Assembly (NCBI RefSeq): GCF_009905375.1
Contig: NC_133648.1
Span: forward strand, 23,243,884 to 23,307,883
Length of the DNA stretch: 64,000 bases
Source: Apium graveolens
Lineage: Eukaryota; Streptophyta; Magnoliopsida; Apiales; Apiaceae
Direction: 5' to 3'
Each line of letters opens with the position of its first letter. Position 1 is the first letter of the stretch. A program made the position numbers and the translations under genes. This document shows positions 369 to 52,872 of the stretch, in pieces. The notes beneath the pieces are model-generated. The model searched no databases, had not been told where the DNA came from, and saw only the letters and a list, made by a program, of their open reading frames with translations.

Positions 369-520
369 AAATAGCTTTAAGATTGTGAATACAATCTGCG
401 ATTAATACATATAAATCAAATAAGTGTGTGTGTGAGTAAACGAAATCAAACAGAGAAAGGAAGAATATAACCAAATGGAAATCCTCGAGTCCAGTTGAAA
501 CTGTCTCCTTAAAGCTATTT
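369..520 (-). promoter_or_regulatory. Primer-binding region complementary to own LTR (element 0)
   Basis: The internal sequence next to the LTR (369-381, aaatagctttaag) is the exact reverse complement of 508-520 (cttaaagctattt) inside the LTR. It is the same 13-nt pair as in element 1. No TGGTATCAGAGC tRNA-type site is present next to the LTR. Confidence 0.6.
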
Positions 521-5983: not shown

Positions 5984-6625
5984 TGTGAAAACAATCTGCG
6001 ATTAATACAAATAATCAAACAAGTGTGTGCGTGAGTAAACGAAATCAAACGGAGGAAGAAAAGATATAAACAGAAGAGAGATCCTCGAGTCCAGTTGAAA
6101 CTGTCTCCTTAAAGCTATTTCGCCTCTCACCGTATGTGCGAGTCGATAGCCTCCCAGGATAAAACGAGGTAGCGGCGGCGTTACGGATAACGAGCACCTT
6201 CAGCGAGCTTGAACGGGCACGAAACTATCACCGAGAGAGAGAGATTTGTGTTTAGAGGCGAATATGTTTTTGGTGTGTCTAACCCTAACGCCTTAGAGGT
6301 GTTTATATAGGTGTAGATAGACTTGTGCGCTACTCTTTTCCATAATTAAATATCATTAATTATGGAATCGGTGTAATACTTGCAAGCTACTCTATTCCAT
6401 AAATAATCTGAAACAGAATCAGATTAAATATATCAAGACATACACCATATCAATTAATCTGAAACAAAATCAAATTAATTTATGCCATAATATTTGAGCC
6501 AAATTCTAATGGAAAATAATAATTTCCATTATTAAGAGAATATCATCATATCTCACACATCTTTTAGTCATAATGCTCAAAAATATGACTTACCAATATG
6601 GGACTTATACCCATATTTTCCAACA
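5984..6625 (-). repeat. 3' LTR of element 1
   Basis: 642 bp, TGTGAAAACAATC...TTTTCCAACA on the plus strand. Next to it inside the element is a purine tract on the minus strand (plus 6626-6640, atcccccacatgggt), the polypurine primer for plus-strand synthesis. The copy of the PBS-complementary segment lies at 6108-6120. Confidence 0.92.
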
Positions 6626-7253: not shown

Positions 7254-10200
7254 TTAAGCAATAGGCTTAAGGCCCATCCCTCTCGATGATTTCTCAACCA
7301 CTTCTCTTGATAACCCTTTGGTTAGTGGATCCGCGATATTATCCTTTGACGGTATATAGTCAATAGTGATAATTCCGGTTGAGATCAATTGTCTAATGGA
7401 ACTGTGTCGTCGTCGTATATGACGAGACTTTCCATTATACATCGTGCTCTGTGCTCTGCCAATAGCGGATTGACTATCACAGTGAATCCCTATTGCAGTT
7501 ACAGGCTTTGGCCATCTTGGAATATCCTCCAGAAACTGACGTAGATATTCAGCCTCTTCGGCGCATTTATCTAGTGCCACAAACTCAGCTTCCATCGTGG
7601 AATGAGTTATCACCGTTTGTTTTGAGGATTTCCATGATATTGCCGCTCCAGCTAATGTAAACACATAGCCACTCGTAGACTTAAGTGCTTTCTTGCTAGA
7701 TATCCAATTTGCGTCAGTATATCCTTCTAATACTGCTGGGTATCTGCCATAGTGCAGTCCATAGTCTCGAGTTCCCCTCAAGTACCTTAGTACCCTTATA
7801 ATCGCTTTCCAGTGATCAGCTCCCGGATTACTCGTAAACCTACTCAACTTGCTAATTGAGTATGCAATGTTTGGTCTTGTACAACTCATGAGGTACATCA
7901 GACTACCAATTATCCTCGAGTATTCCAATTGGGAAATAGCTACACCTTTGTTCTTGGATAGTTGCAAAGTCATATCCACAGGTGTCCTAGCTTTCTCAAA
8001 GTCATCCTTAAGAAACTTCTCAAGGATCTTGTCAACATAATGTGGTTGACTTAATGCGAGACCCTCTGATGTTCTAAAAATTTGAATTCCCAGAATTACA
8101 TTTGCTAGTCCCATATCTTTCATGTCGAACCTTGATTTCAACATGTCCTTTGTAGATTTGATAACTTTATCATTGCTTCCAGCAATAAGTAGATCATCTA
8201 CATATAGTGTCATCATGACATAGCCATTGTCATTCTCCTTGACATAGTTGTTCTATTTATCCTTGTAATAGGCACAACTATCACATTCATTGATTTTGAA
8301 ACCATTGGCCAGCACGACCTCATCAAATTTTTCATGCCATTTCATAGGCGTTTGTTTCAAACCATACAATGATTTCACCAATCTACACACTTTCCTTTCT
8401 TGTCCTGGGACAACAAACCCTTCAGGTTGTTCCATATAGATTTCTTCATCTATGTCTCCATTTAGGAAAGCTGTTTTCATATCCATTTGATGTACAGTTA
8501 GATTACGCATTGCAGCAATAGCAAACATCATCCTTATGGACGTTATTCTCGTTACAGGAGAATATGTATCAAAGTAATCAAGGCCTTTTTGTTGCTTGTA
8601 TCCTTTAATTACAAGTCTGGCCTTATACTTATCAATAGTGCAATCAGTTTTCAACTTCTTCTTGAAAACCCACTTGCTACCTAATGGTTTGCAACCAGTT
8701 GGCAAGTCCACTAATTCCCAAGTATGATTTTGCATAATTGAATCAACTTCATTCTTGATGGCCTCTTTCCACATAGGCCCATCAGGTGAGGTAACCGCCT
8801 CCTTATAAGTTTTTGGGTCACCTTCTTCGAGCAAATAGGTCATAAAATCAGACCCATAGGATTTCTCCGTTCGTTGTCTTTTGCTCCTTCTCACTACCCC
8901 CACATTTTCGTCTTCACTTTCGTCACTCTCATTATCGTCATCTACAGACTCATGAGATCGTTTAGACGTCGTAGGTTGTTGGTTTCCTGGATTACAGGGA
9001 AACATCGTCTCAAAAAATGAGGCATTCCTTGATTCCATAATGGTATTATTTTGAATATCAGGAATCTTGGATTCATGAACAAGAAACCGATATGCAGTGC
9101 TGTGTGGAGGATATCCGATGAAGACACAATCCACAGTCTTAGGACCTATCTTCACCTTCTTCGGTGTAGGGATCAGTACCTTTGCAAGGCACCCCCACAC
9201 TTTCAGGTGTTGGTAACTTGGTTTCTTTTTCTTCCACATTTCATAAGGACTTACATCCTTATTCTTGCGCATCGTAATATTTAAAATATTATTTGCGCTT
9301 AAGATGGCTTCTCCCCACATCGATTGTGGGAGCCCAGAGCTTAACAACATCACATTCATCATCTCTTTCAGAGTGCGATTCTTCCTTTCAGCCACACCAT
9401 TTGACTGAGGGGAGTATGGTGCAGTGACCTCATGGATTATACCATGTTGTGAACAGAATTCCCCAAACGGTTCAACATATTCACCTCCACGATCACTTCG
9501 TATCGTTTTGATTTTCTCAGTTTGTTGTGTCTCAACTTCTTCCTTATAGATTTTAAATTTATATATAGCTTCGTCTTTGCTTTTCAACAAATATACATAG
9601 CAGTATTTTGTACAATCATCAATGAATGTAATAAAATACTTGTTTCCTCCTCTTGTTGGAGCGAATTTTAAATCACATATGTCGCTATGTATTAGGTCTA
9701 GCACTTTGGTGTTCCTTTCCACACGTTTAAATAATGATCTCGTTAATTTTTCCTCAACACAAGTCTCACACTTATGTTTTGGATCGATAGTAAGTTTAGG
9801 TATGTATTCTTTTGCACTTAAACGTCGTAAAGTGTCATAATTTACATGTCCTAATCTAGCATGCCATAAATTAGGAGACTCAAGCAAGTAAGCAGAAGAA
9901 TTCTTCATTTCATCATCGTCCTTAACGGACATTACATTGAGCTTAAAAAGCCCATCAGTTAAATAACCCTTGCCTACAAACATACCACTCTTAGACAAAA
10001 TAACTTTATCTGACTCTATTACAATGCGAAAGCCATGCTTATTCAACAGAGAACCAGACACAAGGTTCTTGCGAATATTAGGCACATAAAGTACATTCTT
10101 CAAAGTTAGATTCTTCCCAGAGGTCATCTTCAGGATCACCGTGCCTTCACCCTCAATGGTAGAAGTTGCTGAATTCCCCATGTAGAGCTTCTCACCAGCA

Positions 10201-11507
10201 TCAGAAGCTTTGAGGCTAGATAAAACCGCCTTGTCTGAGCCAACATGCCTAGTAGCACCAGTATCAATCCACCATTCACGTGGATTAGAACCGACCAGGT
10301 TCACTTCAGAGACCGTAGCACAGAGGTCTATGTCACCCATCTCCTTGGAGATATTCTCTACCATGTTTGCTTCTTTCTTCTTGTTGGGCTTCTTGGGCTT
10401 CTTGCAGTCAGAAGACCTATGACCAACTTTATCACAGTTGTAGCACTTCCCTTGAAATTTCGACTTCGAAATCCCTCCCTTGGGTGCCAGCTTTGCCCCT
10501 TTACCAGAATTAGCCTTCTTGGGCTTGGAGCTTTGAGCATGCTCCACCATGTTTGCCTTCTCAGTGGCAACATTAACTTTCTTCTCGGACCCTCTGTTGT
10601 CTTCTTCAATACGAAGTCTAACAATAAGATCCTCCATAGACATCTCCTTTCGCTTGTGCTTAAGGTAGTTCTTGAAATCTTTCCATCCAGGTGGAAGCTT
10701 TTCAATAACAGCAGCAACTCGGAAAGACTCACTTATGACCATTCCCTCAGCATGAATGTCATGAATGATCACCTGCAGTTCCTGCACCTGACTGACCACA
10801 GTCTTAGAGTCTGTCATCTTATAATCAAGAAAGCGGCCAACAATCCACTTCTTTGCCCCAGCGTCCTCGGTTTTATACTTATGGTCAAGTGACTCCCATA
10901 AGACCTTAGCTGTTGGCTTCGCGCTATATACGTTATACAACGAGTCAGACAAACAATTTAACACATAGTTCCGATAGATGTAGTCGGAGTGCTTCCAAGC
11001 ATCAGCAGCATACACAGTCTGCATGTTACTCTCAGCAGTGAGCAACGGTGGTTCTTCCTTAAGGAATCGATCCATATGCAACGTGGTCAGATAAAAGTGC
11101 ATCTTTTGTTGCCAACGTTTGAAGTTCGTTCCGTTGAACTTCTCAGGTTTTTCAGCATGTGCAGCAGGCACAGTTGGCATAACAGGTGCAGCAGGCACCA
11201 CGGGTGGAACAGATGTTACGTGCGTCTGTACTACAGGTGTATGCACACCAGTAGGCACCGCAGGTATGATCGGAGGAGTGAATCCTGCCGATATCTGTCC
11301 AAGAGGAACACTAAACTGTCCAATGACAGTGTGTCCCACAGGCACATGTCCCGAAGGCACATGTCCAACAGGCGTTTGACCCCCATCAGATCGTACGATC
11401 CGTGCGTTAGGGTTAATCGCCTGCTGGTGAACCCCATCAGATCCAGTGATCTGTGCGTTGGGATCAGCCGTCATGTTCATCAAATCGTTCACAGTTTGGT
11501 TCTCCAT
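7254..11507 (-). pseudogene. Element 1 gag-pol polyprotein, one in-frame TAG
   Basis: Reads from ATG at 11507 (an in-frame TTG lies upstream) to 7254, about 1,418 codons. Order: Pro/Gly/Val-rich N-terminus; capsid-like region; zinc knuckle CYNCDKVGHRSSDC (about 10408-10449); aspartic protease WIDTGATRHV (about 10250-10279); pre-integrase LWHARLGH; integrase D-D-E with RSDRGGEY and SNGVAERKNR (9380-9700); reverse transcriptase with KARLVIKG and YVDD (about 8200); RNase H with [16 protein letters not shown] (about 7600). A TAG at 8253-8255, before YVDD, is the only break; the frame continues either side. A CAG or TGG codon one substitution away could be the ancestral state. Without readthrough no complete RT or RNase H is made. 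Confidence 0.92.
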
Positions 11508-11568
11508 CGATCTGTTACTCAACAAAACAAGCAGATACAGATGTATCAGTCACAGATGTATATAAAAT

Positions 11569-11720
11569 AAATAGCTTTAAGATTGTGAAAACAATCTGCG
11601 ATTAATACAAATAATCAAACAAGTGTGTGCGTGAGTAAACGAAATCAAACGGAGGAAGAAAAGATATAAACAGAAGAGAGATCCTCGAGTCCAGTTGAAA
11701 CTGTCTCCTTAAAGCTATTT
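11569..11720 (-). promoter_or_regulatory. Non-tRNA primer-binding region pairing with LTR (element 1)
   Basis: The 13 nt 11569-11581 (aaatagctttaag), 2 nt inside the 5' LTR, are the exact reverse complement of 11708-11720 (cttaaagctattt) inside that LTR. In the sense RNA the LTR segment would pair with the primer-binding position across a loop of about 126 nt. A TATA-like TATATAAAC (plus about 11898-11907) puts the pairing segment roughly 150 nt after the expected transcript start. Confidence 0.65.
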
Positions 11721-12223
11721 CGCCTCTCACCGTATGTGCGAGTCGATAGCCTCCCAGGATAAAACGAGGTAGCGGCGGCGTTACGGATAACGAGCACCTT
11801 CAGCGAGCTTGAACGGGCACGAAACTATCACCGAGAGAGAGATTTGTGTTTAGAGGCGAATATGTTTTTGGTGTGTCTAACCCTAACGCCTTAGAGGTGT
11901 TTATATAGGTGTAGATAGACTTGTGCGCTACTCTTTTCCATAATTAAATATCATTAATTATGGAATCGGTGTAATACTTGCAAGCTACTCTATTCCATAA
12001 ATAATCTGAAACAGAATCAGATTAAATATATCAAGACATACACCATGTCAATTAATCTGAAACAAAATCAAATTAATTTATGCCATAATATTTGAGCCAA
12101 ATTCTAATGGAAAACAATAATTTCCATTATTAAGAGAATATCATCATATCTCACACATCTTTTAGTCATAATGCTCAAAAATATGACTTACCAATATGGG
12201 ACTTATACCCATATTTTCCAACT
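11584..12223 (-). repeat. 5' LTR of element 1
   Basis: 640 bp, nearly identical to 5984-6625; the last base is T instead of A. A TATA-like box reads TATATAAAC on the minus strand near 11900, so transcription runs left into gag. Confidence 0.92.
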
Positions 12224-27585: not shown

Positions 27586-27650
27586 AGACTTTTAATAGTC
27601 CGACTATGCTTGGGAATCAGGCTCCTCCTGTCCTGTGTTTATCGATCCAT

Positions 27651-27864
27651 CTATTATGTTATCATAAATTGAAACTTTAATTAATATTAAATAAATTTAA
27701 TAAATTTGCTTGAATTAGACAAACTTTAAATGTTAAATCTATTAATATTATGTTTATCGATCCATCTATGGTTTGGATTTAATATTTAAAGTTTGTCTAA
27801 TTCAAGCGAATTTATTAAATTTATTTAATATTAATTAAAGTTTCAATTTATGATAACATAATAG
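27651..27864. mobile_element. MITE / foldback with ~85-bp inverted arms
   Basis: ctattatgttatcataaatt... (27651-27738) and its near-perfect reverse complement (27778-27864) flank a 40-bp loop. The loop repeats a piece of the flanking host sequence (gtttatcgatccatctat at about 27637 and 27752). It has no ORF. The exact superfamily cannot be told. Confidence 0.7.
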
Positions 27865-28690
27865 AATGTTTTTTTGGTAATTACCTTTAGGAATTAAAGT
27901 TTTGATCTCATACTTTATATCAATAGATAAAAGCAATACAAAAAAAATCCCGGATTATATATAAAATTAAATATTCTATTACATTTAAATAAATTTTAAT
28001 TACTTTTATTTTATAAGAATAATGTATTTCTTTTTTAAAAATAGTTTCAAAAACAATTTTTTATAAACAATTTTTGCAATGGTAAAAATAATTTTCCTTT
28101 TTTGTAAGATTGTAACTTTTTTTGAATAATTAGGCTAATACATAAGTGTTTTAATAAATTTAGGGATGAACATGAATAAAGCAATCCAGTACAATTCAAT
28201 ATATGTTGAGAAATAATTTTTTTAACAAATATGAATGATAACCTTACAAATGAGTTACCTCTCTTAAAAAAATTCAAAGTTTTCGAGGAGCGAGAGTGGA
28301 ATTTAGAATTTGGGACGACATATAATAAACTTTTAACTATTTGAGTTATTTAACCGGACTCGGAGCTAAGAAATAATTTAGTTAAAGAATTAATCGTAAA
28401 TTTGTATTTGGTAATAAAAATGCGCAAAAATTTTATCGGTTCAGATTTTATTTAATTCTTAAAAAGTTCAATTTTTTTAAATAAATAGGGTCAGACTTTT
28501 TTAAAATAGGGTCGGGTCGACTTCCTCTCAAGTATGAGATCTATTTTAGGTTCGTGAGTCAGGCCGGATTGGGCCTGATTTTATCCGTATTTTTCTTATT
28601 TATATATTAAATGTTATTTATTAATTTTCACCTTGATCTATGCATAATTTAGATACCGAACAATATAATATATTAAATTATAAAAGAGAG
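27865..28690. other. AT-rich intergenic stretch
   Basis: No supported gene, repeat end or array. A short run (about 28500-28590) of GGGTCGGG/GGGCCTGA words suggests an old repeat I cannot classify. Confidence 0.5.
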
Positions 28691-31818: not shown

Positions 31819-32723
31819 TGTTGGGTATAATTCTAACTATAAAGACTGTAATTGACAAAGAAAGTAAAGAAAATTTATCTCTTATCGCTTTCCAAATTCT
31901 GATAAGAAGAAGAACACAACAGCTGAGTCGCCAAAGCCTTCAAGAGGACTTGACTATTCTTGAAGAGATTATTGCTCCCCACTTAAGCTGTGATGGAATG
32001 CAGCAATATCGCTTCCAGGATAAAACAACAACAGATCAATCTTGCCATAGAACCAACAATGATCAACGGCGACTCGCACCTCAGTTTGCCCAAAAAACCT
32101 ATGCAACTCATATATATTTGCGAGGTAGGCATCGAGACTTGTGTCATTTTAATCTCAAGTATACCTCTCAATATATAGGCATCTCAAGTTGCTCTTCTTC
32201 TATTTTACTCGATGTGGTACACCAAGTAACAAAACATAAAAAGTAAACAAAATGGGTTTTCCTTATTATTTATATTATATCCTGATTAATTAATATTAAT
32301 ATTACAAAATATATTCAGAGTATGATTAAAATAATCCTTACTCAATATATTTTATATCAATAATTAAATAATCAATATAAATAATTAAACTTGTAATAAA
32401 AAAGAAAAATATAAGAGTTCCTACTAGCACTAGGCCACACAAACATTCCACTTATGCTAGTAGTTGTAAACAATACTAACAGAAGATGCTATATAAACTC
32501 AATATATTTCTTTTACAATACCAGTGTGGGACAAAATCCCCATAACCCATTTCAAACAAGCAACTTTGTCTCAATATATTCATGGATTCCACTAAGAAAA
32601 TGTCTTAGATCCAAATATGAAAGTTTAAGTCCTCATGTCAAGGAAAAACCTCCAAGTGTTAGCTTCCGGAAATCATATCAAGAACATATATAAAATATGC
32701 CTCAAACTTTCCATTTTCTAACA
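31819..32723 (-). repeat. 3' LTR of element 3
   Basis: 905 bp, TGTTGGGTATAATTC...TTTTCTAACA. The inner flank atccacaaatcc gives a weak polypurine tract on the minus strand. Its copy of the PBS-pairing segment (TCTTGAAGAGATTAT) is near 31958-31972. Confidence 0.9.
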
Positions 32724-37385: not shown

Positions 37386-37555
37386 ATAATCTCTTCAAGA
37401 TTGTTGGGTATAATTCTAACTATAAAGACTGTAATTGACAAAGAAAGTAAAGAAAGCTTATCTCTTATCGCTTTCCAAATTCTGATAAGAAGAAGAACAC
37501 AACAGCTGAGTCGCCAAACCCTTCAAGAGGACTTGACTGTTCTTGAAGAGATTAT
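37386..37555 (-). promoter_or_regulatory. Non-tRNA primer-binding region pairing with LTR (element 3)
   Basis: 37386-37400 (ataatctcttcaaga), 1 nt inside the 5' LTR, is the exact reverse complement of 37541-37555 (tcttgaagagattat) in the LTR: 15 nt with no mismatch. The sequence is unrelated to the 13-nt pair in element 1, but the position is the same. A TATA-like box (TATATATTGA on the minus strand, about 37752-37761) lies about 200 bp upstream of the LTR segment. Confidence 0.65.
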
Positions 37556-38240
37556 TGCTCCCCACTTAAGCTGTGATGGAATGCAGCAATATTGCTTCCA
37601 GGATAAAACAGCAACAGATCAATCTGGCCACAGAACCAACAATGATCAACGGCGACTCGCAACTCAGTTTGCCCAAAAAACCTATGCAACTCATATATGT
37701 TTGGGAGGTAGGCACCGAGACTTGTGTCATTTTAATCTCAAGTATACCTCTCAATATATAGGTATCTCAAGTTGCTCTTCTTCTATTTTACTCGATGTGG
37801 TACACCAAGTAACAAAACAGAAAAAGTAAACAAAATGGGTTTTCCTTATTATTTATATTATATCCTGATTAATTAATATTAATATTACAAAATATATTCA
37901 GAGTATGATTAAAATAATCCTTACTCAATATATTTTATATTAATAATTAAATAATCAATATAAATAATTAAACTTGTAATAGAAAAGAAAAATATAAGAG
38001 TTCCCACTAACACTAGGCCACACAAACATTCCACTTATGCTAGTAGTTGTAAACAAAACTAACACAAGATGCTATATAAACTCAATATCTTTCTTTTACA
38101 ATACCAATGTGGGACAAAATCTCCATAACTCATTTTAAACAAGCAACTTTGTCTCAATATATTGATGGATTCCACTAAGAAAATGTCTTAGATCCAAATA
38201 TGAAAGTTTAAGTCCTCATGTCAAGGAAAAACCTCCAAGT
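37402..38240 (-). repeat. 5' LTR of element 3, main part
   Basis: Aligns closely with 31819-32660. Cut at caagt by element 4 and resumes at 46226. Confidence 0.9.
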
Positions 38241-39915
38241 TGAAAGGAATATGTCCTAAGTCCAATCATGTATGAGGATTTAGCAATAACTTTTATGAAT
38301 CTGTTTTGATTTCATTGATATCAATAAAAGACTTGTTTTGTTTTTATTACGGGCTTTATCTATTTAAGTGTTTAAATAAGATATACCATAGTTTAGAGTA
38401 AAACTTTTTATGGATTATGATGAGATCATAATAGCGAGACCTAAAAAGATGATAACTCTAAACTTAAATAGTTCCTGGTCATAGGATTACTAACTGGTAA
38501 TTAATAATCCGCAAAGATCGGTACATACTATGCTTGCTTCATTATGAAGGATGTCTGTTCTCATAGACATTTGTGTGGTGACACTATAGCTAGTATGTAG
38601 GTGCTTATTATAGAATAAGTTCACTGAACATGACTCGCACAGCTGAACAACTGATGGAGTTCACTCACGTGTCAGCAGTTGTTCACATAGTGATAGTTGT
38701 ACAAGTATCCTTAGACTTGAGGTCATCATAGTCATCTTGTGTACACTGAACTATGCTTTGGTTTAGTTCTTAGTCTCCAGGGATAATTATTAGGGCTCTA
38801 CTAGGTATAGGAATTTGTACACGAAGATAGTGTATGATCAATAAAGGATCTACCCCTTCCAGTGAAGGAAGCGAATGTTCAAGGCTGATCCACTTATGCT
38901 AGTTCAGGAATCTCTGGCCAGAGTGAATGAAATTAGAAAGGAGTTTCTAATTTGCATAGAACTAAGCATAGTAAATGGTAAGCAAGTGATTGAATTAGAT
39001 AGGCTTGACACGAGATCCATGCCTTGTATTTAATCGGGACATTGTAGGGTAGAAGGAGTTTATTGTACGGTAACTATTCACTGAATAGGTTCTTGGTATT
39101 CTAAGCAGTGAATTCATATTATCCAGATAGTCGTGATATGCTGAGAAGTATCCCTCACGATGTAGAATAAATGTGATTAATTAATTAATCATATTTAATA
39201 AATTAGAGAATTTATATAAATAATGATAAAATAGTTTTATTATTATTTATTTCTACTACCGGCTTAATATTGAACCTACAGGGTCACACCATAAAAAGAG
39301 AATAATTTAATGGTGGAGGAATTAATTAATAATGGCTAAATAATTATTTATTTGTGAAATAAATAATTAATTGGCAAATTTAATAATTGATTAAATGAGA
39401 TTTAATTGATTATAAATTAATTAAGAAAAGTTCTTAATATTATTAATTAAGGATTTAATTTTTGGAAATTAAATCAAGAGAGAGAACTATTTCTAGAGTG
39501 TTTAGAAAAAGGATTAATAATTAAAAGGTGTTTTAATTATTAATGAGAATAATAAATGGGATAATAATAATATTATTTATGGGAAAATTTCAGCTGAAAA
39601 TTATGCCTATAAATACACTATTATAGACCCTATTTTTATTCTAACCCACATTCTAACCCGAAAACCCAAAAAGTTTGGAAAATCCAATTCACTCCACCTT
39701 CTTCCTCCTCCTTAACATCGTTTTCTTGGTGGATACCGGTGGAGTGCTTCACACTTGAGGAGCAACTGCTAAGGATCTCTGATCGTTGTCTCCGAATTAT
39801 TTTAAAAGGTTAGATTCGATCCCTCGAATTTTTATTCACGATTTATATGCTTTTATTTGGATTTTGTATGTGTAAAAGTGTTTTGCTATGCCCCCGCTGC
39901 GTTAAAAATCCAACA
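38241..39915 (+). repeat. 5' LTR of element 4
   Basis: 1,675 bp, TGAAAGGAATATGTCC...AAAATCCAACA. A TATA-like CTATAAATA is at about 39608-39617. Confidence 0.93.
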
Positions 39916-39916
39916 A

Positions 39917-39928
39917 TGGTATCAGAGC
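39917..39928 (+). promoter_or_regulatory. Primer-binding site of element 4
   Basis: TGGTATCAGAGC, 1 nt after the LTR; initiator-Met tRNA type. Confidence 0.92.
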
Positions 39929-40352
39929 GTAGGTTGTACGCATATAGATCTGTGGTAAAAATTTCAGAATTTTATGTGCTTGTATGAATTAATTATGATT
40001 TTTACAAGTTATATCATGGATTAATTTTGTCTGATGAGAAATCGTTTCTCATAATAATTTTGAATGTTGATCTGGGTTCTACAAGTGTTGTAGATCGTCT
40101 GGGTATTTTTTTCATAATTTTAGGATGTATAGATTTTTTATTATGAATTTTTGAAGTTGTTGCAATTAAATTCGTAATTAAATAAACATATATATATATT
40201 ATTTGTTAGTATGTATATATATATAGATCTGTACTGTTGTCTGCTGCTGTCTTGTCTGTCTGGGATGTACGACTGTCAGGTCAGGCACGACGTTCGAGGA
40301 GGTAAGCTGTCGGCGGTTGCAAATAAAAAAAAATAAAAATAAAAAAATAGGG

Positions 40353-40475
40353 GTGTAACGCATTCCGGGAATGCGTTACACACCTGTGGCGCATTCACGG
40401 AATGCGTTACACCCTTGTAACGCATCACCGAAAGGCGTTACAGGGCTTGTAACGCGTTCCTGTAATGCGTTATAG
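40353..40475 (+). repeat. Four tandem hairpin-forming repeats in the leader of element 4
   Basis: The first hairpin is a perfect palindrome with 14-bp arms around one base (40353-40381; arm GTGTAACGCATTCC). Three looser copies follow: GCGCATTCACGGAATGCG, TGTAACGCATCACCGAAAGG, TGTAACGCGTTCCTGTAATG. All have the theme GTAACGC...GCGTTAC and a spacing of about 30 bp. Confidence 0.8.
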
Positions 40476-41180
40476 CCCGTTTGTTGATTTTAAAATTGAT
40501 TTTCTGGGAGTTTCGTAACTCCGTTTTGGGCGTGCAATATACCGTTGGATTCATTTTTCCGAGATGGATCTAATGGAGTGATCAATTTTAGTTTATATAA
40601 AATTTTTGAACTATTTATATTCCATGAAGTGTTTTAAAGCTGTTTTTGATCGTTTGAATTGATTTTAAATGCTTCATGTGATAGATAGAGATGTATATTG
40701 CTTAGAACAATGTGCTAGATGATGTAACATGCCTACCTTGATGTTTATTTATATTGATATATGTGATATATGCTTAGTTTATCATGCGATGATAGATTTA
40801 GGTGAACTTGAATGAACATAAGGTGTTTGTTAGACAACCAGTATAGTGAAATTGTTTCATAACCTTAATAACAATATTATGAATACAATCATGAGATTCT
40901 TGTGTTTATGAAACACGTAATTGAATATGAATTTTCAATATGAGAGAAAGGATGATTCTGTCAACAACAGATTTCTATCTGTAAGAAAGGGTTATTAAGT
41001 GACGCCTCTTGACAATGCTCCACCCGATCTGGGAATCATCTGATTATTGATTATTGATTTGAAATATTTAATTTAAAAGGAAGAATCTCTTTATAATATG
41101 ATTATGATTGTAACGTAATATAATCCCTCTAAAATTAAATAATATCAAGTAGTAATTGGCCAATGACACAACGGGCTTGT

Positions 41181-41536
41181 GTCGGTCATAGCCTTCCAAC
41201 ATGATAGAAAATTAGTTCTTATTTTTGAATCATTGTCGGTTCGTGCTACAGCCGAGGGCTTTGATTTCAAAATAAGAAATACTTGTCTATTACATAGAGA
41301 TGTGTACATTGAATAAGAATCTAAAGGTCGGTACGTGCTACAGCCGTGGGCCTTTGGGGACTGATTCAACTGTACGGAATGTTGGGTTAGACTTGACTTA
41401 GAATATTGAGTTTGTCGTGCTACAGCCGAGACTCAATTATTCAAGAGGCTAAAGTATGATTAGGGAATAACATGAGATGTAATTGACAAGAGTTGTATGC
41501 CTATTGAACATTACATGGCGGTTCGTGCTACAGCCG
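41181..41536 (+). repeat. Interspersed GTGCTACAGCCG motif in the leader of element 4
   Basis: Exact 12-mers at 41243-41254, 41335-41346, 41417-41428 and 41525-41536, most preceded by YCGGT(T/A)C. A degenerate version is near 41181. The spacing is 80-110 bp, all upstream of gag. Confidence 0.85.
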
Positions 41537-41739
41537 GGGTCGTGTAATGGAATGTAGGATCCCTATTCCCACTAGCATTATGAATGCTTAATTTTTCACG
41601 TAGGGGGTTGAATAAATTAGGAAAACTAGTGGGAGCCACTTATGAATAAAGACCCAATTCATATAGTATTTTGAAATGAAATCGAATATTTGCTAAGTGT
41701 TATTATGTGTTTATCATTTACAGATTTACTTTGTACGTT

Positions 41740-44500
41740 ATGTCTTCTGCACTATCACTCAGGAGCATACTAGAGGCTCACAAATTGACTGGTCCTAATT
41801 ATGCTGACTGGCTTCGAAACTTGAGAATTGTTCTCAGGATTGAGAAGCTGGAATATATGATTGACTCACCTAAGCCTACTGAACCTGCTAGTGATGCACA
41901 TAATGATGAAGATGTTGTGTATCGTGAGTGGATAGATGATGCAAATGTTGCTCAATGCATCATGCTAGCTTCCATGAACATTGAGCTACAGAAGCAACAT
42001 GAGCATATGGATGCTCACACTATCTTCATGCATCTACAAGAGTTGTATGATGTGGTGGGGAGGACAGCTCGATATGAGATATCGAAGGAGTTGTTCGGTT
42101 GTAGGATGTCTGAGGGATCATCTGTGAATGACCATGTACTTAAGATGATCAATTTGATTAAACGTCTTGGAAAACTTGGTTTTGCCATGGATGGGGAGCT
42201 GAGCCAAGACTTGGTCTTGCAATCGCTTTTGAGTTCGTTCTCGCAGTTTGTTGTGAACTTTCACATGAATAAGTTAGATGTCAGCCTGCCTGAACTCCAC
42301 AACATGTTGAAGACTGCGGAATCGAATTTTCCCCCTAAGAAGAGTTCTGTTCTTCTAATTGGTGAAGGTTCCAATCCTAAGAAAAGGAAGAGGAACCCTT
42401 CCAAGAAGAAGAAAGTAGGTGAGAAAATGCTGGTTCCACCAAAAGCTGAAGATCCCGAGAGCAAAGTTGTTTGCTTTCACTATAACAAGGTGGGGCACTG
42501 GAAGAGGAACTGCAAGGTTTACCTTGCAGAATTGAAGAAGAAGAAGGGTAGTGAGACTACCGCTTCTGATTCAGGTATGTTCATGATAGAAGTGAATATG
42601 TCATTAAATCAAATTTCTACTTGGGTATTAGATACCGCCTGTGGTTCTCATATCTGCAATTGTTGCAGGGACCAAGGAGAAGTAGGACTCTTGAGGAAGG
42701 GGAGGTGATTTTACTGATGGGAAATGGAGCAAGAGTTGCTGCTGAAGATGTAGAATCATTTCATTTACATATGCCTACGGGCAAGACTATTGTTTTAAAT
42801 AAGTGTTATTTTATTCCCTTGATTGTGAGGAATATTATTCCCATGTTAGACTTGGCTGGATTTTCATTTATTATTGAGAATAATGAATGTTCTATTCTTA
42901 GAGATAATATTCTTTATGGACGTGGTGCTTTAAATAATGGTCTGTATGAATGTGACATAATTTGCTTCAGATTGAACAAACTAATAAAAGAAAAGGGATG
43001 ATGAAAATCTCACTTTATAGTGGCACTGCAGTCTCCATTTAGTAGACATGGAGAGAGGACTGCAAATTTGCTAGGAATGGTACACAAAGATGTATGTGGA
43101 CCGATGTCTACGCAAGCCATGGGTGGATTTTCATACTTCATTACTTTCATAGATGATAGATCTGGATTCGGATATGTGTTTGATGAAACACAAGTCTAAG
43201 GCCTTTGAAAAGTTCAAAGAATATAAGTATGAAGTGGAGAAACAACCAAACATAGTATTATAACTCTTCGATCAGATCGAGGTGGTGAATACTTTAATGG
43301 AGTGTTTCTAGATTATCTCAAAGTAAATGGTATAGTCTCCCAGTGGACGCCTCCAGATTGGTATCTGAAAGGAGAAATTGAACTTTGTTAGACATAGTTC
43401 GGTCCATGATGAGCTATGCAAATCTTCCAGTATTCCTATGGGGTTATGCATTGGAAACCTCAGCATATTTACTGAATAAGGTGTCTTCCAAATCTGTTCC
43501 TCAAACTTCATATGAGATATGGAAAGTAAGGAAACCGAGTCTTAAACACGTTAAGATTTGGGGATGTCCAGCTTATGTCAAGTAAGTTGACCCAGATAAG
43601 CTGGAATATCGATCCGTAAAATGTAGTTTTGTGGGATATCCTAAAGAGACTTTAGGGTATTACTTTTACACCAATCATCGGGTGTTTGTCTCCAGACATG
43701 CTACCTTCTTGGAAAAGGAGTTTATCCTAGAAGGAAACAGTGGGAGCAAAATTGAACTTGATGAAGTTCAAGAAGCACAAACTACTACGTATCAAGTGGA
43801 AACACCTGTTCTGACTGAACAACCTTTTGTGGAATAGCCCATTCATAGATCAGGGAGAGTGTCTCGCCAACCTGAGAGGTAATATGGCCTTTTCATTGAG
43901 AATGACAATGAGTTGTCGATCATTAATGATGACGACCCTGTGACCTATAATGAGGCTATGAGTAGTGTTGACTCAGAGAAATGGCATAGTGCCATGAAAT
44001 CCGGAATGGAATCTATGTATACGGTATACGAAAGAATGATTAGAGCAGATGGCCAGGTGGAGACCTTTAAGGCCAGGCTTGTGGCAAAAGGATTCAAACA
44101 AAGGCAATGGATTGACTTTGATGAAACCTTTTACCTGTAGCCCTGTTAAAATCAGTTCGGATTTTGATTGCGATTGCTGCTTACTATGACTATGAGATCT
44201 GGCAATTAGCCAGATGGTTTTCTTTCCAAGAGAAATGAAAACCTAGTGTGTAAGCTACTGCGAACCATAAGTGGTTTAAAGCAAGCTTCTCGTAGATGGA
44301 ACATACGTTTTGATGAGATAATCAAAGAGTTTGATTTTATCAAAAACGAAGATGAACCATGCGTCTACAAAAGGGTTAGTGGGAGCGCGGTAACATTTCT
44401 TGTATTGTATTGAATTAGAGTTGACACACATAACAACATAGCAGACCCACTCACAAAGCTACTTTATGAAAGTCACTTTGATCGTCATAAAGACTAGATG
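41740..44500 (+). pseudogene. Element 4 gag-pol, frameshifted and RT-deleted
   Basis: Gag from ATG 41740 (MSSALSLRSILEAHKLTGPN) stays open to about 42690. The zinc knuckle CFHYNKVGHWKRNC (42472-42513) has Tyr in place of the second Cys, and the protease motif is DTAC for DTGC (about 42633). After a frameshift come the rest of PR (to about 43001), then integrase pieces GGFSYFITFIDDRSGFGYVF and RSDRGGEYFNG (about 43120-43300) and a post-integrase part (43385-43837). Of RT only the start remains (FKARLVAKGFKQRQ, about 44065), then a fragment, then the RNase H end [11 protein letters not shown] (about 44425). The RT core with YVDD is deleted. It cannot mobilise itself. Confidence 0.88.
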
Positions 44501-44543
44501 GGTATTAGATACTAGAGTGATCGGCTTTAGTACAAGTGGGAGA

Positions 44544-46220
44544 TTGAAAGGAATATGTCCTAAGTCCAATCATGTATGAGGATTTAGGAATAACTTTTAT
44601 GAATCTGTTTTGATTTCAAGGATATCAATAAAAGACTTGTTTTGTTTTTATTACGGGCTTTATCTATTTAAGTGTTTAAATAAGATATACCATAGTTTAG
44701 AGTAAAGCTTTTTATGGATTATGATGAGATCATAATAGTGAGACCTAAAAAGATGATAACTCTAAACTTAAATAGTTCCTGATCATAGGATTACTAACTG
44801 GTAATTAATAATCCGCAAAGATCGGTACATATTATGCTTGCTTCATTATGAAGGATATCTGTTCTCATAGACATTTGTGTGGTGACACTATAGCTAGTAT
44901 GTAGGTGCTTATTATAGAATAAGTTCACTGAACATGACTCGCACAGCTGAACAACTGATGGAGTTCACTCACGTGTCAGCAGTTGTTCACATAGTGATAG
45001 TTGTACAAGTATCCTTAGACTTGAGGTCATCATAGTCATCTTGTGTACACTGAACTATGCTTTGGTTTAGTTCTTAGTCTCCAGGGACAATTATTAGGGC
45101 TCTACTGGGTATAGGAATTTGTACACAAAGATAGTGTATGATCAATAAAGGATCTACCCCTTCTAGTGAAGGAAGCGAATGTTCAAGGCTGGTCCACTTA
45201 TGCTAGTTCAGGAATCTCTGGCCAGAGTGAATGAAATTAGTAAGGAGTTTCTAATTTGCATAGAACTAAGCATAGTAAATGGTAAGCAAGTGATTGAATT
45301 AGATAGGCTTGACAAGAGATCCATGCCTTGTATTTAATCGGGACATTGTAGGGTAGAAGGAGTTTATTGTACGGTAACTATTCACTGATTAGGTTCTTGG
45401 TATTCTAAGCAGTGAATTCATATTATCCGGATAGTCGCGATATGCTGAGAAGTATCCCTCACGATGTAGAATAAATGTGATTAATTAATTAATCATATTT
45501 AATAAATTAGAGAATTTATATAAATAATGATAAAATAGTTTTATTATTATTTATTTCTACTACCGGCTTAATATTGAACCTACAGGGTCACACCATAAAA
45601 AGAGAATGATTTAATAGTGGAGTAATTAATTAATAATGGCTAAATAATTATTTATTTGTGAAATAAATAATTAATTGGAAAATTTAATAATTGATTAAAT
45701 GAGATTTAATTGATTATAAATTAATTAAGAAAAGTTCTTAATATTATTAATTAAGGATTTAATTTTTGGAAATTAAATCAAGAGAGAGAATTATTTCTAG
45801 AGTGTTTAGAAAAAAGGATTACTAATTATAAGGTGTTTTAATTATTAATGAGAATAATAAATGGGATAATAATAATATTATTTATGGGAAAATTTCAGCT
45901 GAAAATTATGCCTATAAATACACTATTATAGACCCTATTTTTATTCTAACCCACATTCTAACCCGAAAACCCAAAAAGTTTGGAAAACCCAATTCACTCC
46001 ACCTTCTTCCTCCTCCTTAACATCGTTTTCTTGGTGGATACCGGTAGAGTGCATCACACTTGAGGAGCAACTGCTAAGGATCTCTGATCGTTGTCTCCGA
46101 ATTATTTTAAAAGGTTAGATTCGATCCCTCGAATTTTTATTCACGATTTATATGCTTTTATTTGGATTTTGTATGTGTAAAAGTATTTTACAATGCCCCC
46201 GCTGCGTTAAAAATCCAACA
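44544..46220 (+). repeat. 3' LTR of element 4
   Basis: 1,677 bp. Preceded by the polypurine tract AAGTGGGAGAT (44533-44543). Confidence 0.93.
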
Positions 46221-46225
46221 CAAGT

Positions 46226-46288
46226 GTTAGCTTCCGGAAATCATATCAAGAACATATATAAAATATGCCTCAAACTTTCCATTTTACA
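46226..46288 (-). repeat. 5' LTR of element 3, outer remnant
   Basis: Aligns with 32658-32723, ending TTTTACA. It completes the LTR interrupted by element 4; 46221-46225 is the duplicated caagt. Confidence 0.85.
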
Positions 46289-52503: not shown

Positions 52504-52872
52504 TGTTGGAAGTATTAACTATTACAGCAACATAGAGGCAATTATGTAACATATTTAACAAGCCAAGGCCAAGATAATAATTAACAATACAAAACATGTA
52601 GGTAAATAACATTCATATAAGTAACTGGAAGAACAAAGAAAGACCAGAAAGTGTACCATAGCTTTAACACATTGAAAAGAAACAGAAAAAACCGTGGTAG
52701 AAAACAGGTAAAATGTAACAAGAAAATGATTAGCTGAGTCGCCAGGCCTTGCTCAAAGCCCTGACTGATCTTGAAGAGAGAATTACCCCCACCTGCTGAG
52801 TTGGATTGCTTGCATTGCCTCCTCTAGGATAAAACAGCTCAGGACTTCATGTTGACAGCAACAACATATTCA

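What the first reader, a model, noticed from the sequence alone, without database searches (positions are those of the whole stretch)
37386..37555. LTR-PBS self-complementarity that co-varies between two copia families: possible self-priming
In element 3 the 15 nt next to the 5' LTR (37386-37400) are the perfect reverse complement of 37541-37555 inside the LTR. In element 1 a different 13-nt pair (11569-11581 with 11708-11720) has the same geometry, and element 0 repeats it (369-381 with 508-520). None of the three has the tRNA-Met PBS that elements 2, 4, 6 and the TRIM carry. Two unrelated sequences keeping the pairing is covariation-type evidence. Known parallel: Tf1-type elements prime reverse transcription with their own RNA. 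There the primer is the extreme 5' end, whereas here the segment lies some 150-200 nt past a TATA box. It could also be a U5-PBS regulatory helix.
Basis: partly seen in the sequence, partly recalled or inferred. Interest (0 to 1): 0.88.

Follow-up and report, generated by a model that had tools for sequence, protein, structure and literature searches.

The report
Plant retrotransposon primer site mirrors LTR
Three related families of a plant jumping gene carry, just after their first long terminal repeat, a short site that matches the reverse complement of a stretch inside that repeat, which suggests that the element's own RNA rather than a cell tRNA starts its copying, as has been predicted before for one lineage of plant copia elements.

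Summary
Element 3 has a 15-nt and elements 0 and 1 a 13-nt perfect reverse complement between the LTR-adjacent site and the LTR; four tRNA-Met elements of the window show only background. It is kept in the host genome: 18 of 20 fetched element-3-family copies keep both 15-mers; 16 of 18 low-ranked element-1-family copies keep all 13 pairs. In a third family (element 5 type), 5 of 12 fetched LTR copies adjoin a different site that matches their own LTR over 14-16 nt. In the element 3 family the site hardly varies (0.6% pairwise) while the next 8 nt differ by 40% (ungapped, few types). This fits a site copied from the primer, as in self-priming, better than a helix kept only by selection. Self-priming was already predicted for the plant Ty1/copia TAR lineage with this same criterion (PMC6317226). 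So this is a new member of a known, here untested kind. The families are related, not 'unrelated'. Open: the segment lies 187-214 nt past the nearest TATA box, unlike Tf1, and leader folds are mixed. tRNA matching and TAR membership by phylogeny could not be tested.

The parts
37386..37400 (-). Element 3 primer-binding site, TCTTGAAGAGATTAT in the sense of the element; 1-nt spacer at 37401
   Evidence: exact in 19 of 20 fetched family copies
37541..37555 (-). Element 3 LTR segment (putative self-primer), ATAATCTCTTCAAGA in the sense of the element
   Evidence: exact in 19 of 20 fetched family copies
37402..38240 (-). Element 3 5' LTR, U5-side part; interrupted by the nested element 4 and continued after 46220
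31958..31972 (-). Same segment in the 3' LTR of element 3
11569..11581 (-). Element 1 primer-binding site, CTTAAAGCTATTT; 2-nt spacer 11582-11583
11708..11720 (-). Element 1 LTR segment, AAATAGCTTTAAG
   Evidence: family copies
11584..12223 (-). Element 1 5' LTR (3' LTR at 5984-6625)
6108..6120 (-). Same segment in the 3' LTR of element 1
369..381 (-). Element 0 primer-binding site (same sequence as element 1)
508..520 (-). Element 0 LTR segment (same sequence as element 1)
52769..52783 (-). Diverged copy of the LTR segment (2 mismatches) in a third family, element 5, whose LTR starts at 52505; its own primer site was not found in the window
   Evidence: family copies
37598..37609 (-). CCAGGATAAAAC motif shared by the LTRs of both families, just upstream (in sense) of the segment; also 32015-32026, 11754-11765, 6154-6165, and with 1 mismatch 554-565 and 52824-52835

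Best explanation
The site next to the 5' LTR is a primer-binding site for the element's own RNA. A stretch of the LTR transcript (13-16 nt) anneals to it, in cis or from a second packaged RNA; its 3' end is set free by cleavage, and reverse transcriptase extends it into U5. Because the primer is then copied, the site in the progeny is rewritten from the LTR segment, which keeps the two in step and gives a sharp edge. Shown here: the complementarity, its conservation within three related families, the paired change between families, the edge at the outer end of the site. Inferred: annealing, cleavage, extension and copying.
For: Complementarity far above chance and absent from the four tRNA-Met elements tested. 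Right position: starts 1-2 nt after the LTR, where other elements of the window have the tRNA-Met site. Element 3 family: both 15-mers exact in 18 of 20 copies. Element 1 family: 30 of 30 near-identical loci, one of them the window itself (not independent); 26 of 30 (3 have one difference in the site, 1 could not be aligned; some loci are the same insertions as); 16 of 18 low-ranked copies. Element 5 family: site TCTTGAAGAGATAATT matches the own LTR segment AATTATCTCTTCAAGA over 16 nt in L108, L109 and L110, 15 nt in L115, 14 nt in L116; of the other 7 fetched LTRs, 5 adjoin other sequence and in 2 the LTR end was not recognised. Own pairs are more stable (-19.1, -14.8, -20.0 kcal/mol) than the 4 of 6 possible swaps computed (-16.8, -16.3, -8.4, -2.4). 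Edge: 0.0063 differences per site in the 15 nt of the site, 0.40 in the next 8 (21 of 21 sequences).
Against: No RNA or cDNA evidence. The segment lies 187-214 nt downstream of the nearest TATA box, not at the RNA 5' end as in Tf1. Leader folds are mixed: from the TATA-based start the helix is predicted in element 1 (0.26-0.98 per pair) but not in element 3 (0.02-0.03) or element 0 (0.01); from 60 nt before the segment it is predicted in element 3 (0.79-0.94) but not in element 1 (0.02-0.04) or element 0 (0.00); only from the segment onward is it predicted in all three; the element 1 stretch again folds otherwise. The edge exists on the site side only: the 15 nt after the LTR segment do not vary at all (0.000) and the 15 nt before it by 0.056. 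The variable stretch after the site is only about 10 nt and has few types, the count is ungapped and so inflated by indels, and beyond it the sequence is conserved again. L061, L064 and L076 have one difference in the outer part of the site, L091 two and L094 one. My written prediction of the element 5 site from the window's own copy was wrong in letters; only the match to each copy's own LTR held.
Confidence: 0.75

Rival explanations
1. A U5-PBS regulatory helix: the pairing controls packaging, dimerisation or the start of copying, while an unidentified tRNA or tRNA fragment is the primer.
For: Position in the R-U5 part of the LTR and the retroviral precedent (recalled). The helix can form in some of the leader folds. 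The core CTT(G/C)AAG is nearly palindromic, so it could also pair between two RNAs.
Against: No TGG at the LTR end, so no ordinary whole-tRNA 3' end fits. In the element 3 family variation starts at the outer end of the complement, and a wobble pair was seen in 1 of 20 copies (L020), which a copied site predicts and a selected helix does not require.
Confidence: 0.15
2. Priming by a half-tRNA or another host small RNA whose sequence also happens to be in the LTR.
For: Half-tRNA primers are reported for the Bianca, Osser, Bryco and part of the Gymco-II copia lineages (PMC6317226, passages). The genome's tRNAs could not be compared (one search did not complete).
Against: The site differs between families as their LTRs differ. 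A single host RNA would not follow that.
Confidence: 0.07
3. Chance or shared ancestry without function.
For: The families are related and share the core CTT(G/A)AAG, so part of the agreement is inherited; copies of one family are not independent.
Against: 0, 0 and 2 of 2000 shuffles. Paired changes on both sides between families, and a nearly constant site next to variable sequence.
Confidence: 0.03

Closest known systems
TAR lineage of plant Ty1/copia (includes Houba and Osr-1), predicted self-priming; Neumann et al. 2019, PMC6317226
   Same: Ty1/copia element of a flowering plant; no tRNA-Met site; region of at least 10 bp starting 0-5 bp after the 5' LTR complementary to that LTR, which is the paper's own criterion.
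   Different: Lineage by reverse transcriptase tree not tested here. The passages seen give no primer position for TAR, no edge analysis and no paired changes between families; its supplements were not open to me.
Tf1/sushi chromoviruses (Tf1, Tf2, Tj1)
   Same: Primer-binding site complementary to the element's own 5' LTR RNA instead of a tRNA (PMC7175516, PMC4600332, PMC10085805; passages).
   Different: Those are Ty3/gypsy with the primer at the extreme 5' end of the RNA (first 11 nt in Tf1), a chromodomain and a three-duplex 'pretzel'. Here: Ty1/copia, 13-16 nt, and the segment is 187-214 nt past the nearest TATA box.
Fungal GalEa copia elements with a Conserved Hairpin Site
   Same: Copia elements without a tRNA site; near-palindromic sequence right after the LTR (PMC5445492, passages).
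   Different: There no LTR complement was found; here it is the main feature.

Membership tests
TAR lineage (REXdb) | Complement of at least 10 bp in the 5' LTR, starting 0-5 bp after the LTR | tested here: met
   15 nt at offset 1 (element 3), 13 nt at offset 2 (elements 0, 1); criterion
TAR lineage (REXdb) | No tRNA-Met primer site | tested here: met
TAR lineage (REXdb) | Groups with TAR reference elements in RT, RH and INT trees | not testable with these tools
   no lineage-labelled reference sequences came up; the names among the listed protein hits are generic
Ty1/copia superfamily | Integrase before reverse transcriptase, copia-type gag | tested here: met
   Pfam order in element 1, 8253-11525: Retrotran_gag_2, rve, RVT_2
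Tf1/sushi group | Ty3/gypsy chromovirus with chromodomain | tested here: not met
   copia domain order in element 1 and no chromodomain hit at E 0.001 in the 8 ORFs scanned; of element 3 only one 319-aa ORF was scanned
Tf1/sushi group | Primer is the extreme 5' end of the RNA | tested here: inconclusive
   nearest TATA box 205, 187 and 214 nt upstream of the segment in elements 3, 1 and 0; the RNA 5' end was not mapped
Tf1/sushi group | Three-duplex 'pretzel' leader | tested here: inconclusive
   elements 1 and 0 can form a short hairpin AGATTGT/ACAATCT across the LTR end, seen in the sequence; I saw none at that place in element 3; folds are mixed

The most novel reading that the evidence does not exclude
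In this copia clade the primer is an internal piece of the LTR transcript, cut out some 155-180 nt from the RNA 5' end (TATA-based estimate), and the primer-binding site is rewritten from it in each round, so that LTR and site evolve in concert. That would be a self-priming mode different from Tf1, visible from sequence change alone.
Probability: 0.35. Interest if true: 0.65.

Novelty: new member of a known kind. Interest (0 to 1): 0.42.

Why it matters
Self-priming in plant copia elements has been predicted by complementarity; the passages I saw report no bench test of it in plants. The paired change between related families and the edge of conservation at the site are further evidence than complementarity alone, and they give a simple test that can be run on every TAR family in sequenced plants. 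The position of the segment raises a concrete open question: how the primer is released if it does not lie at the RNA end.

Tried and rejected
External relatives: viral contigs gave no relative in 2 scans; genome contigs gave 1 locus, a 4.35-kb contig of a Robertmurraya kyonggiensis assembly whose match starts at base 64, so it holds no LTR; plasmids gave 12 records, all under 60% identity. Distant gag query (P0071) to reach other families: answered, but many of its 150 places were already; I fetched none of it, so it added no new family. Literature: searches (open-licence library only). Ten papers were opened, passages only except one section and the outline of PMC6317226; among them only PMC6317226 was seen to link plant copia to self-priming, itself citing Capy 2005 for Houba and Osr-1. 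PMC2206039 and PMC4659654 were false leads (the term occurs in the title of a PCR method). PMC3601003, PMC5006619 and PMC2864245 (passages) gave background only; in PMC2864245 neither tRNA- nor self-priming was found for one Tcn1 element.

I considered a TATA-less start right at the segment, since CA or CG precedes it. It cannot be excluded, but TATA boxes upstream make it less likely. I dropped copy L029 as a proof of mosaic origin: its LTR is 99% element-3 type with the element-3 site, and its spacer base and next bases look like element 5, but over 70 nt after the site it is 81% like L010 and 85% like L108, while L010 and L108 are themselves 84% alike.

Selection effects: the 20 element 3 copies were all those, besides the window, whose hits covered both the LTR and the internal start (40 candidates scored of 1951); element 1 copies are mostly near-identical; one search took 18 of the 150 places, mainly low-ranked ones; one search took 12 of the 40 places. 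In one search sequences were found by the site string itself; all 21 given passed, so none was lost.

Full report
The window lies in a 3.33-Gb genome, G000:C2:23243884-23307883.

Observation. Three minus-strand copia elements matter. Element 1: LTRs 5984-6625 and 11584-12223, 5-bp target duplication TGCTC. Element 3: LTRs from 31819 and 37402; its 5' LTR is interrupted by element 4, with duplication CAAGT. Element 0: partial, LTR from 384. Against 2000 dinucleotide shuffles of the LTR, 0, 0 and 2 reach the observed length for elements 3, 1 and 0; four tRNA-Met elements stay at 5-7 nt. With up to one mismatch the tRNA-Met site occurs at four places, all in other elements.

Conservation. In 20 element-3-family copies, the segment is exact in 19, the site in 19, both in 18; L020 has one change that leaves a G-U pair, L016 one change at the last base. 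Among 21 sequences (window included), pairwise difference is 0.0063 per site in the 15 nt of the site, 0.40 in the next 8 and 0.036 in the last 15 nt of U5; around the LTR segment it is 0.056 before, 0.0063 in it and 0.000 after, so the edge shows on the site side only. The variable stretch is about 10 nt long and has few types; beyond it the sequence is conserved again. In the element 1 family, 30 of 30 loci cut are exact but near-identical, one being the window; of 30 loci, some the same insertions, 26 are exact, L061, L064 and L076 have one difference in the outer part of the site, and L065 could not be aligned; of 18 low-ranked copies 16 are exact, L094 has 12 and L091 11 of 13 pairs.

Third family. 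An LTR at 52505 onward, 70% like that of element 3 over 195 aligned positions, carries the segment with two differences. I wrote down the expected site beforehand. Of 12 LTR copies fetched, 5 adjoin a site: L108, L109 and L110 pair over 16 nt with their own LTR, L115 over 15, L116 over 14; 5 adjoin other sequence, as 3' or solo LTRs would, and in L114 and L118 the LTR end was not recognised. The letters differ from my prediction because the window copy's segment differs from its family; the rule that the site follows its own LTR holds. Compared with element 3, one pair has changed on both sides (T-A to A-T). Compared with element 1, a G-C pair in the core has become A-T and several outer pairs differ. 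Own pairs are more stable than the four swaps computed.

Mechanism. A site that is a copy of the primer must match it over the primer length and be free to differ beyond; that is the pattern seen. In tRNA-primed elements the site is known to be rewritten from the tRNA (recalled). A helix kept by selection alone would allow wobble pairs and gives no reason for an edge. These are inferences from sequence; no RNA was seen.

Where the primer lies. The nearest TATA boxes are 205, 187 and 214 nt upstream of the segment in elements 3, 1 and 0. With a usual 30-nt spacing (recalled), the RNA would start some 155-180 nt upstream, so the primer would be internal. In Tf1 it is the first 11 nt, cut by RNase H (PMC7175516, passages). 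Leader folds do not settle it: in the long leader the helix is predicted for element 1 only, from 60 nt before the segment for element 3 only, and from the segment onward for all three; it is predicted for element 3 and L109 but not for element 1.

Known or new. Neumann et al. 2019 (PMC6317226; passages, section 20) predicted self-priming for 12% of plant LTR elements, naming the TAR and Tcn1 lineages, by a complement of at least 10 bp starting 0-5 bp after the 5' LTR. Elements 0, 1 and 3 meet that criterion. Membership in TAR by phylogeny could not be tested, since no labelled references came up. What is added here is evidence from sequence change, not the idea.

Noticed in passing
38240-46220 within 37402-46285: Element 4 (LTRs 98% alike over the aligned 1677 nt) is inserted into the 5' LTR of element 3, with duplication CAAGT.
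   Followed up: partly
37402-37555 against L010-L029: The window copy of element 3 lacks about 90 nt of U5 that the 20 fetched family copies have.
   Followed up: partly
L030-L089: The element 1 family has many near-identical copies, and many of the places have open frames over 1400 aa: probably a recent burst.
   Followed up: no
L001: A plant-like copia fragment in a Robertmurraya kyonggiensis assembly (coverage 0.3 in its title): probably contamination.
   Followed up: no
NZ_CP115454.1, NZ_CP115302.1 (plasmid collection): Two 4.6-5.2 kb 'plasmid' records of rhizosphere actinomycetes encode copia-like polymerase (36% identity): perhaps misassembled eukaryotic DNA.
   Followed up: no
27650-27865 and 1545-1724: Two inverted repeats (90 nt, 98% complementary; 76 nt, 83%), possibly small DNA transposons.
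   Followed up: no
37386-37400 and 11569-11581: The core CTT(G/A)AAG is palindromic except for its centre, so the segment and the site also resemble each other directly.
   Followed up: no
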